Below, piece after piece: positions 17,101 through 20,100 of a stretch of DNA of 64,000 bases. Position 1 is the stretch's first letter; every line of letters begins with the position of its first letter. The position numbers and the translations under genes were made by a program. The notes under the pieces are model-generated. The model saw only the letters and a list, made by a program, of their open reading frames with translations, searched no databases and was not told the DNA's origin. The DNA is from Tubulanus polymorphus (lineage: Eukaryota > Nemertea > Palaeonemertea > Tubulaniformes > Tubulanidae): assembly GCF_964204645.1 (NCBI RefSeq), contig NC_134033.1, forward strand, positions 14,200,155-14,264,154, written 5' to 3'.

Positions 17101-20100
17101 CATGACGACCGCCGGTCGAACGCACAACGGGGGTACCGGTAAAACCGTACAGACCATCCAGTCCGGCCGCGACCAACGCGGGTCCATTCCCAAACACAAG
17201 CTGTCCTCGTCGGTGATATTCTTGAATATCTCGTAAACGCGGTCGGCGGTGAGGATGATCTTACGTTCCTGCGAGTCCTCGTTCACGTGTTTCCACTCGG
17301 CGACCAGCTCGAGCGCGGTGCGCTTGATTTTCGGTTGGTATCGACCGCAGCCGCCGTGACCGTGCTGAAACAAAACAACAACTCCGATAATCAGCGACAC
17401 ATCCCCGTAAATAACATATCAACATCTGCACGTACTGCGGCAAGCTAGGATTTCACTCTATGGCAAGTGAAGATCCACCAGGTATTGCTTGTATACAGTG
17501 CCCCATTTTGACTTTCTTTTTGCCCTTAAGACCAATCTTTAGACTACTTTTTTACCTAAGTTGAACCAGCCCCAGGTAAAAAGACTGGTCTTTAAGTTGT
17601 TAGATTGACTGAAATATAGTAAAACTATATTTCAGGCTATATTTCTAGACTGAAGTTAAACTATATTTCAGTCTATCTAACAACTTAAAACTGTTTTATG
17701 CACAAATGGACCCTCCGAGATACATTTTTAGTCGAGGCCGGGATGTTGTATCTACCCAGGGTTTATTCTCTACCTTTTTAGTCGGGGCCGGGGTGTTGGT
17801 AATTCAGGGTCTATTCTTACCTTTTTAGTCGAGGTCGGGATGTTGTATTGAGCCAGGGTCTATTCTTACCTTTTTAGTCGGGGCCGGGGTGTTGGTAATT
17901 CAGGGTCTATTCTTACCTTTTTAGTCGGGGCCGGGGTGTTGGTAATTCAGGGTTTATTCTTACCTTTTTAGTCGGGGCCGGGGTGTTGGTAATTCAGGGT
18001 TTATTCTTACCTTTTTAGTCGGGGCCGGGGTGTTGGTAATTCAGGGTTTATTCTTACCTTTTTAGTCGGGACCGGGGTGTTGGTAATTCAGGGTTTATTC
18101 TTACCTTTTTAGTCGGGACCGGGGTGTTGGTAATTCAGGGTTTATTCTTACCTTTTTAGTCGGGGCCGGGGTGTTGTCATCGTCGTTTTTGTTTTCCTCG
18201 TTCATTTTCGTGTCCATTTCGTCGCCGCCTTCGCAGATATTTTTCGCCTTGCAAATATCGTAAACGTGCGCGAGACGTTTACGCGACTGGCCCGACGTTT
18301 TCTTCAGAACGTCTTTCACTTTCGGATGATTCTGTAAAATAAGTGAAATATAGCAATATATACCGGTATGTAAAGATAGTGAATTCACTAGTTAACAAAA
18401 TATGGAAATCTACTTATTTCAACTGCAGTTCAATCTAACGCAGATCTGTGGAACTTGCTCCAGAACTGCAGAACTGGGTTCACTCAGAACTATGGAATCA
18501 AGTTCAATCAGAACTGTGGAATTGAATCTTGCGACTCCTGAACTGTGGAACTTGCTCCAGAACTGCGTTCACTTAGAACTATGGAATCAGGTTCAATCAG
18601 AACTGTGGAATTGAACTGTGGAAATAGATCTTGGGACTCCTCAACTGTGGAACTTGCTACAGAACTGCGGAACTGGGTTCACTTAGAACTATGAAATGGG
18701 GTTCAATCAGAACTGTGGAATTGAACTGTGGAAATAGATCTTGGGACTCCTCAATTGTGGAAATAGATCTTGGGACTCCTCAATTGTGGAAATAGATCTT
18801 GGGACTCCTCAATTGTGGACATAGATCTTGGGACTCCTCAACTGTGGAACTGTATCTTCAAATTGAACTCCTGAAGTGTGGAACTGAATCTTGGGACTTT
18901 CGAACTGATTTCGGGATTCCCGAACTGGGACTGCTTATGTCTAGTCCAGGGGGGTGGCAGGTGCTCTACTCGCTCGTACTCACCATATCAACGAGTATCT
19001 TCGAGCAGAAGAAACAAACGCAGCGTAAAATCTTGATCGTCTTCGTGAAGAACCCGACGTGGAATACGGGCTTCGCGAGTTCGATGTGCCCGAAATGCCC
19101 GGGGCACTCGGTCATGTTTCCGGCGCACGTCTGACACCGAGCCGTACGATCTATAACGCCCTGACGCGGATCCATCAATCCGCCGAGCTTCGGACGTCCA
19201 CCTTCCATCGTCTCGGAATATTTGATGCCTCCTTCGGTCACCGACATACGTTTCTAAAATGACAATATCACAAATTCTCGTTCATTAACAAAAAGTTCTT
19301 GATCAGTTTCAGTTTGAAATTTTGGGGAACTGTACTAAGGATTAGGGTTAATCAGTAACCTGAATCTGTGTGGTTTGGGTACGAATCCCAGGAGAGGAGG
19401 ATGTATAATGAACTTTTTTATTGTTACTAAGCCAACACTCCAATGGTTAACTAACCAACTTTTGAGCAGCCGGCCCCTGAGGGTAAGGATGGTTAGGTTA
19501 GGTACATAGCTAAAGTGGCATCTAGTGTACTATTGCTCCAAAATTTTCATTCATCACATAAGACTATAGCCAGGGCCTTATACATGCTCATGAGAGGTGC
19601 CGGCAGAATAAGTTTTATTTCATGGCCCAGCATCGTGATAGCCTACAATATCTATGTCTTTATCTGGTTAAGAATAATGTCTAGCTTTCTCGACACTTTC
19701 TCCTCTACGTTCTAAAGGTTTTCATGTTGTTTTATTCTCAAAACTGGAGGGGGAAATATTCTGTAATTTTCTGTGCAGAAATTCATTCCAGTTCATTTTC
19801 ATTTTCAATCTCATACATCCATAAATTGTGGAAGGAGTCCCAAAAATATTACTTGTGTTTAATAAAGGCAGCTTCATGGGATTGATGATGATGAGCTATT
19901 TATTTTCGAAATGACTGGGTCGGACAAGAGAAAACAAAGGGAGTTAACGGACAATTTCCACATATAAATAAAATAAATCTATATAATTTATTTATTCCGA
20001 TAAATAGATAGGATACGTACAAGTTCGTCGGGACCGAGGATTCCGAACTGCATCTTTTTAACATCTCGTAATCGAGCCGGGGAATCAGAGGTCTGTCCAG

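What the first reader, a model, noticed from the sequence alone, without database searches (positions are those of the whole stretch)
17710..18173. A 47-bp minisatellite has multiplied the 5' splice site of POLR2A exon 3
The last 22 or so bases of exon 3 plus the first 25 bases of intron 3 form a unit repeated about ten times. Eight units carry the identical strong donor AAAAAG/GTAAGA. Because 47 is not a multiple of 3, use of the second donor shifts the frame. Use of the third or later would include the in-frame AGG TAA formed at the next copy. So in an essential gene the spliceosome must pick the first of eight equal donors, or the cell must remove the wrong products by nonsense-mediated decay. 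It is a natural test of donor choice by proximity and a possible dial on RPB1 level.
Basis: partly seen in the sequence, partly recalled or inferred. Interest (0 to 1): 0.75.

Follow-up and report, generated by a model that had tools for sequence, protein, structure and literature searches.

The report
Minisatellite repeating a POLR2A splice donor
In a ribbon worm, a short DNA repeat has copied the splice signal at the end of one exon of the main RNA polymerase gene eight times over; the same layout occurs in at least one other gene, and such repeats are known from amphioxus, so it is real and probably tolerated, but it is a good natural test of how cells choose among identical splice sites.

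Summary
The window is Tubulanus polymorphus (Nemertea); POLR2A is on the minus strand, 1963 aa, identical to the NCBI protein. A 47-bp tandem repeat (17721-18176) starts 25 nt inside exon 3 and runs into intron 3. Nine copies have AAAAAG|GTA, eight of them AAAAAG|GTAAGA. This donor ranks 4th of 22 in POLR2A; none of 779 other intronic GTs equals it. Only donor 1 gives RPB1; donors 2-9 give premature stops. The annotated protein uses donor 1; no RNA evidence was reachable.

It is not unique. In the same genome an HLCS-like exon ends in nine donors 31 bp apart, and a probable ENT exon in ten of unequal strength; in both, only donor 1 avoids an early stop. Such exon-boundary duplications are known in amphioxus as "mirages", where splicing seems regular (PMC3087553, passages).

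Best reading: a mirage, mostly silent, with the exon-side donor winning. The "dial on RPB1 level" has no support. Proximity to the 3' splice site would favour the last donor, so the value is a repeated natural test of first-donor choice.

The parts
18152..18331 (-). POLR2A exon 3 (180 nt, phase 0 at both ends)
   Evidence: gene model; protein identical to NCBI P0001
17721..18176 (-). 47-bp minisatellite, 9.6 copies, spanning the end of exon 3 and the first 431 bp of intron 3
   Evidence: TRF; overlap
18146..18157 (-). donor 1 AAAAAG|GTAAGA, last exonic base 18152; the only donor that gives RPB1
18099..18110 (-). donor 2, last exonic base 18105 (+47 nt, 224-aa product)
18052..18063 (-). donor 3, last exonic base 18058 (198-aa product)
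18005..18016 (-). donor 4, last exonic base 18011
17958..17969 (-). donor 5, last exonic base 17964
17911..17922 (-). donor 6, last exonic base 17917
17864..17875 (-). donor 7, last exonic base 17870 (its unit is 49 bp)
17815..17826 (-). donor 8, last exonic base 17821
17768..17779 (-). donor 9, weak (AAAAAG|GTAGAG), last exonic base 17774
   Evidence: score 1.77 against 11.36
18101..18103 (-). in-frame TAA that ends every product of donors 3-9
   Evidence: position computed (stop at CDS nt 595)
18141..18146 (-). AATAAA starting at intron base 6 behind donor 1; same hexamer with first bases at 18099, 18052, 18005, 17958 and 17767
17365..18151 (-). POLR2A intron 3 (787 bp)
17080..17364 (-). POLR2A exon 4

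Best explanation
The array is a 'mirage': a minisatellite born by tandem duplication of the exon 3/intron 3 boundary, which then grew into the intron. Shown: the copies start inside exon 3, eight carry the same strong donor, they are nearly identical next to the exon and diverge towards the intron, and only the exon-side donor gives RPB1. Inferred: the spliceosome nearly always uses the first donor. Likely reasons are that U1 captures the first site as it leaves the polymerase and stays tethered there, and that enhancers in purine-rich exon 3 help the exon-side site. Any use of later donors is removed by nonsense-mediated decay. The array is tolerated rather than selected, because all copies but the first are intronic and the exonic tail codes for a variable loop. 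The same thing has happened at another exon end, and probably a third, in this minisatellite-rich genome.
For: Array and donors. The NCBI protein (contig length 16,481,795, equal to the window's contig) is identical to the donor-1 gene model. Donors 2-9 all give premature stops. Polarity: copies 1, 4 and 5 are identical and copies 1-6 differ by at most 2 of 47 bases, while later copies carry more changes. Recurrence: HLCS-like exon with nine donors at 31 bp and a probable ENT exon with ten donors; in both only donor 1 avoids an early stop. The window is minisatellite-rich: 35 merged arrays of period 10 or more, the coding CTD repeats included, make up 13.3%. Exon 3 is the most purine-rich of 23 exons (0.628), and its last 80 nt before the array have 0.713 purine and 8.75 GAR triplets per 100 nt against 0.551 and 3.74 in the array. 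The coded loop varies between 18 and 30 residues in 116 of 118 matched RPB1 sequences. Literature: amphioxus mirages do not seem to disturb regular splicing (PMC3087553, passages). [quoted passage not shown]
Against: No RNA data were reachable, so first-donor use rests on the annotated protein and on the need for a working RPB1. Whether NCBI's model had RNA support was not seen. Predicted accessibility gives donor 1 no consistent advantage: in fixed windows it reads 0.000 and all nine array donors lie between 0.000 and 0.053; in growing transcripts it is sometimes ahead (0.020 against 0.001 with two copies) and at full length not (0.001). By GAR triplets alone exon 3 (6.11 per 100) is third of 23, behind exons 18 and 14. 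As I recall classical tests, strong duplicated donors favour the intron-proximal copy, which is against first-donor choice. The third case is weak: Pfam finds no family in the ENT-like exons.
Confidence: 0.77

Rival explanations
1. Unproductive-splicing dial. A sizeable, perhaps regulated, share of transcripts uses donors 2-8 and is destroyed, so copy number sets RPB1 output and may differ between individuals.
For: Every bypass product has an early stop upstream of many exon junctions. Donors 2-8 score the same as the real one.
Against: No bypass product was found among 13 candidates, although no other Tubulanus RPB1 fragment was found that could have shown one. No relative was available to show conservation. 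The HLCS-like and ENT-like exons carry the same layout, which argues for a mutational cause.
Confidence: 0.12
2. U1 platform or telescripting. Each of copies 1-5 fuses a donor to a poly(A) hexamer (GGTAAGAATAAA), so the array could be a switch in which U1 occupancy decides between full-length and prematurely polyadenylated transcripts of Pol II's own gene.
For: Six AATAAA in intron 3, five of them starting at base 6 after a copy of the donor. Donor 3 is the only one of 22 donors with AATAAA within 20 nt. U1 suppression of intronic poly(A) sites is described in abstracts seen as starts in the listing.
Against: The downstream sequence is poor in G/T (0.23-0.40 over 40 nt), so no clear downstream element. 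Intron 1 also has six AATAAA, and 3.6% of 47-nt windows of the other introns carry one, so one chance hexamer copied with the unit explains it.
Confidence: 0.05
3. Recursive or stwintron-like scarless removal. Nine copies end in AG|GT, so whole copies could be spliced out in steps and regenerate the same donor.
For: Each such unit runs GT...AG. Donor duplication is proposed as a route to [D] stwintrons in Lipomyces (PMC7138796, passages).
Against: The array AGs score -7.1 to -8.2 as acceptors, against a minimum of -0.28 for the 22 real ones scored leave-one-out; 435 of 660 intronic AGs score at least as well. There is no clear pyrimidine tract, and one unit (47 nt) is shorter than any POLR2A intron (minimum 107).
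Confidence: 0.03
4. Assembly artefact of copy number.
For: A tandem repeat; reads were not available.
Against: The array is 456 bp in a 16.48-Mb contig, which long reads would span; how the genome was sequenced was not seen. Copies carry distinct interspersed variants.
Confidence: 0.03

Closest known systems
Mirages of amphioxus (Adh3, BflGb6, BflGb9; PMC3087553, passages read; the 2002 report, doi 10.1093/nar/gkf386, is not held, and was seen only as a reference)
   Same: Minisatellite-like tandem duplication of an exon-intron boundary; many copies carry splice signals; homogenised cluster with a diverged edge; unit length in the Adh3 range (10-72 bp).
   Different: Ribbon worm rather than cephalochordate; POLR2A; eight identical strong 5' splice sites. 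Regular splicing and haplotype length variation were shown there and not here.
Human IFI6 (6-16, G1P3) minisatellite (Turri, Cuin and Porter 1995; not held; seen as a reference and in one citing sentence)
   Same: A minisatellite at an exon end provides multiple splice donor sites.
   Different: In IFI6 two downstream repeat units are used as donors, giving three mRNA species; the 12-bp, in-frame unit is recalled. Here the unit is 47 bp and every later donor gives a stop.
Intron gain by tandem duplication of AGGT-containing sequence (PMC4974935, title and abstract start)
   Same: Tandem duplication carrying AG|GT.
   Different: The intron here is the pre-existing one; no new intron is made.
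[D] stwintrons of Lipomyces (PMC7138796, passages)
   Same: Duplicated donor elements at one intron's 5' end.
   Different: There proposed duplications of 4-7 nt plus new internal acceptors; no good acceptor in the array here.

Membership tests
Mirage (minisatellite-like duplication of an exon-intron boundary) | Tandem repeat unit that spans an exon-intron boundary | tested here: met
   24-25 nt of exon 3 plus 22-23 nt of intron 3 repeated
Mirage (minisatellite-like duplication of an exon-intron boundary) | Splice signals repeated in many copies | tested here: met
   eight identical AAAAAG|GTAAGA plus one weak site
Mirage (minisatellite-like duplication of an exon-intron boundary) | Regular splicing of the mRNA despite the repeats | tested here: inconclusive
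   the NCBI protein equals the donor-1 model; no RNA reads reachable
Mirage (minisatellite-like duplication of an exon-intron boundary) | Length differences between haplotypes or cells | not testable with these tools
   one assembly; no second haplotype copy found
IFI6-type donor minisatellite | Repeat donors are used and give alternative mRNAs | tested here: inconclusive
   no bypass product among 13 candidates, no other RPB1 fragment of the species found
IFI6-type donor minisatellite | Unit length a multiple of 3, keeping the frame (recalled) | tested here: not met
   47 bp; all later donors give stops
Recursive splice site / stwintron | Functional acceptor directly at the AG|GT | tested here: not met
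   acceptor scores -7.1 to -8.2 against at least -0.28 for real sites, (by score only; no RNA)

The most novel reading that the evidence does not exclude
Exon-boundary minisatellites recur in the T. polymorphus genome, POLR2A included, because its spliceosome obeys a near-absolute first-donor rule: the 5'-most of many identical donors is captured by U1 on the polymerase and never loses to later copies. Each array would then be an in vivo test, with five to eight identical donors in a row, that classical intron-proximal preference (recalled) does not hold in this animal.
Probability: 0.35. Interest if true: 0.72.

Novelty: new member of a known kind. Interest (0 to 1): 0.5.

Why it matters
As I recall the field, choice among equally strong 5' splice sites is mostly studied in minigenes with two sites. 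Here one animal offers POLR2A with eight identical donors, an HLCS-like gene with eight identical ones of nine, and probably an ENT gene with five identical ones of ten, spaced 13-49 bp apart, where only the first avoids an early stop. Junction counts along the arrays would read out the choice rule directly. It also carries the mirage phenomenon, seen here in print only for amphioxus, to a spiralian, which suggests it follows from high minisatellite load rather than from one lineage. My paper searches do not establish that mirages are unreported elsewhere.

Tried and rejected
RNA structure as the selector: GGTAA of each donor can pair with TTACC in most units, but donor 1 has no consistent advantage. 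Recursive splicing: rejected on acceptor scores. A genome-wide mechanism that multiplies donors: AGGTAAG x3 (gaps 30-60) has 218 matches against 303 for the reversed control, and CAGGTAAG x3 (gaps 14-44) has 25 matches in 6 arrays against 56 control matches. Donor-bearing arrays as such are therefore not enriched; what is unusual is sitting at a real exon end. Transcript evidence in the protein database: none found for this species among fragments of about 123-1008 aa (length limits).

Survey of arrays outside the window: the list was cut off after about 100 places on contigs C1-C4 and held 13 arrays by my grouping. I read the flanks of 10 of them and left 3 unread (C1:82k, C3:780k, C4:7.77M). 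One search gave 6 arrays, 2 of them new; I read both. Of these 12, one is at a coding exon end (HLCS-like) and one probably (ENT-like); one is uncertain (C3:372k, 26 open codons behind a fair acceptor); one is inconclusive (C4:27.05M, array edge not clearly reached); eight showed no convincing coding exon (longest open stretch 36 codons, C1:31.59M), though a non-coding exon would be missed. The AAGGTAAG x3 search did not complete, so the POLR2A-type count is unknown. A 200-kb sample plus the window gave 40 arrays (23 and 17): 2 have three or more donor-like sites at score 11, both in the window, and 4 at score 9, two of them in one sampled locus, L015.

Negative identity tests: the HLCS-like exon alone gave only a weak, below-cut-off Pfam match; the joined HLCS-like piece had no PDB hit and no NCBIfam hit. 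The ENT-like first exon and following pieces had no Pfam hit.

Full report
Identity. The window carries a complete RPB1 gene on the minus strand. I built a gene model by similarity and GT-AG search, with intron 6 and intron 22 set by eye: 23 coding exons, ATG at 20116, stop at 764, 1963 aa. A protein search returned NCBI [quoted passage not shown] on a contig of 16,481,795 bases, identical over its whole length to the model. The window's own contig has the same length. T. polymorphus is a palaeonemertean ribbon worm, with flow-cytometry genome sizes of 313-358 Mb (PMC8468679, table passage) against 267.8 Mb assembled.

Observation. TRF finds a 47-bp array at 17721-18176. Read on the minus strand, it begins 25 nt before the end of exon 3 and fills the first 431 bp of the 787-bp intron 3. 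Nine copies carry AAAAAG|GTA; eight have GTAAGA and the ninth GTAGAG; a tenth is broken. Spacing is 47 except for one 49. A search with two units matched only this array. A search with exon 3 to exon 4 returned the locus itself, an inverted repeat within intron 3, and many matches to a dispersed repeat further down the intron (79 matches in all).

Donor strength. With a matrix from the other 21 POLR2A introns the repeated donor scores 11.36; 3 of 21 score higher (leave-one-out), and none of the 779 other intronic GTs of the gene reaches it. The extra copies are thus the strongest additional donors in the gene's introns by this measure. The matrix rests on few introns, so scores are rough.

Consequences. 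Donor 1 gives 1963 aa. Donor 2 adds 47 nt and gives 224 aa. Donors 3 to 9 all read the TAA created at the second donor and give 198 aa. With many exon junctions downstream, such mRNAs should be decay targets; this is inference from general knowledge.

Is any later donor used? The held evidence cannot tell. The bypass product was sought directly: 13 candidates, one hit, a 165-aa RPB1 fragment of another organism at 55% identity. A search sized for partial transcripts gave 70 hits among 161 candidates, the best 69% identical over at least 90% of the region, so none from Tubulanus. The absence therefore means little. The annotated protein is the donor-1 form.

Why the first donor might win. Simple proximity to the 3' splice site would favour the last donor, not the first. 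Two features can favour the first. Exon 3 is the most purine-rich of the 23 exons, and the stretch just before the array is richer still, while the array is not; by GAR triplets alone exon 3 is only third. U1 is recruited to elongating Pol II, and the 5' splice site it binds stays tethered while the intron is made (PMC12216098, passages), which gives the first site a head start. Proteins bound near competing donors can shift the choice either way (PMC5585400, passages). RNA folding gives donor 1 no consistent advantage.

Not alone. The search for three closely spaced AGGTAAG in the genome gave 218 matches against 303 for the reversed control, so donor-bearing repeats are not enriched in general. 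Reading the flanks of 12 arrays outside the window found one at a coding exon end and one probably so. The first is an exon between the BPL_N and BPL_LplA_LipB stretches of an HLCS-like gene (Pfam E 2e-8 and 5.6e-6, both above cut-off); the exon alone has no significant Pfam match, and PDB and NCBIfam gave nothing. Exon 92055-92237 of contig C1, its start set at the best acceptor (score 11.9), ends in nine donors spaced exactly 31 bp: eight CAG|GTAAGAC (score 9.33) and one GAG (6.43). Fourteen nt of the exon tail recur in the next copy. Donor 1 runs on in frame into the next exon for 151 codons from the exon start, and donors 2-9 stop after 74-91 codons. The second is the first coding exon of a probable equilibrative nucleoside transporter on C1. 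Ten GTAAGTC donors start at its end, 812560, with alternating spacing of 26 and 13 and unequal strength (five TAG at 8.37, four TTG at 5.86, one TCG at 7.08). Donor 1 splices to an exon whose junction-spanning peptide matches human ENT1 as the only PDB hit (E 0.045, weak), while Pfam finds nothing; donors 2-10 all stop at residue 66. Its unit shares only 3 nt with the exon, so it is a donor-first intronic array rather than a strict boundary duplication. In all three genes only the first donor avoids an early stop. That is what selection would leave behind if the first donor is the one used; this is inference.

Origin. Copies 1, 4 and 5 of the POLR2A array are identical and copies 1-6 differ by at most two bases, whereas copies 7-10 carry more changes. 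So the exon end seems to take part in the array's homogenisation. The exonic part codes for the end of a loop between ICEGG and GHGGCGR. Of 191 proteins held, 118 matched my pattern for this loop; 116 have 18 to 30 residues and two, of 45 and 77, look like mispredictions or retained introns; the worm has the longest of the 116, with 30. Many of these sequences are close relatives of each other. A mammalian-type sequence (P0155) reads on into non-coding-like sequence exactly after the corresponding lysine, which suggests the same intron position there; this is inference. The window is rich in repeats: 35 merged arrays (coding CTD repeats included) cover 13.3%, and 1 of 44 POLR2A splice sites lies in one.

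Known kind. [quoted passage not shown] The POLR2A array meets the structural definition; splicing and instability are untested here. The human IFI6 minisatellite is a second precedent, but there extra donors are used (PMC4526556, one passage).

Other features. Copies 1-5 place AATAAA directly behind the donor, which invites a U1/poly(A) competition idea, but the downstream context is poor and one chance hexamer copied with the unit explains it.

Verdict. A real, well-formed mirage in POLR2A, with one clear and one probable sibling case in the same genome. Ordinary in origin and probably mostly silent, but unusually good as a test of donor choice.

Noticed in passing
G000 C1:92055-92485 (loci L036, L039, L040): HLCS-like exon ending in nine donors spaced 31 bp; only the first avoids an early stop.
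   Followed up: yes
G000 C1:812378-812756, minus strand (loci L041, L048, L049): Probable ENT/SLC29 first coding exon followed by ten GTAAGTC donors of three strengths in a 39-bp (26+13) array.
   Followed up: partly
window 18141-18146 and five further sites to 17767, minus strand: AATAAA fused to the donor in copies 1-5 (GGTAAGAATAAA), and present again in copy 9; copies 6-8 have AATAGA.
   Followed up: partly
window 55342-55680, + strand: Another array with three AGGTAAG sites (55480, 55573, 55666), antisense to a Yorkie/YAP-like gene (gene name recalled from WW-domain and N-terminal motifs, not tested).
   Followed up: partly
window 44058-44861, 51567-52075, 54066-54675, 55342-55680: Minisatellites that by eye share a GGTTTGAATCC-like motif resembling a tRNA B box (recalled); ARAGORN finds no tRNA in the window.
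   Followed up: no
window 17433-17499: A stretch of intron 3 matches many places in the genome at about 76-91% identity, a dispersed repeat.
   Followed up: no
window 2268-2462, 14171-14367, 18511-18849, 36707-36961: Minisatellites that by eye share a TTCCACA-containing core on one strand or the other (units).
   Followed up: no
G000 C4:7766115-7770489: Repeated AGGTAAG inside what looks by eye like a coding repeat (listed).
   Followed up: no
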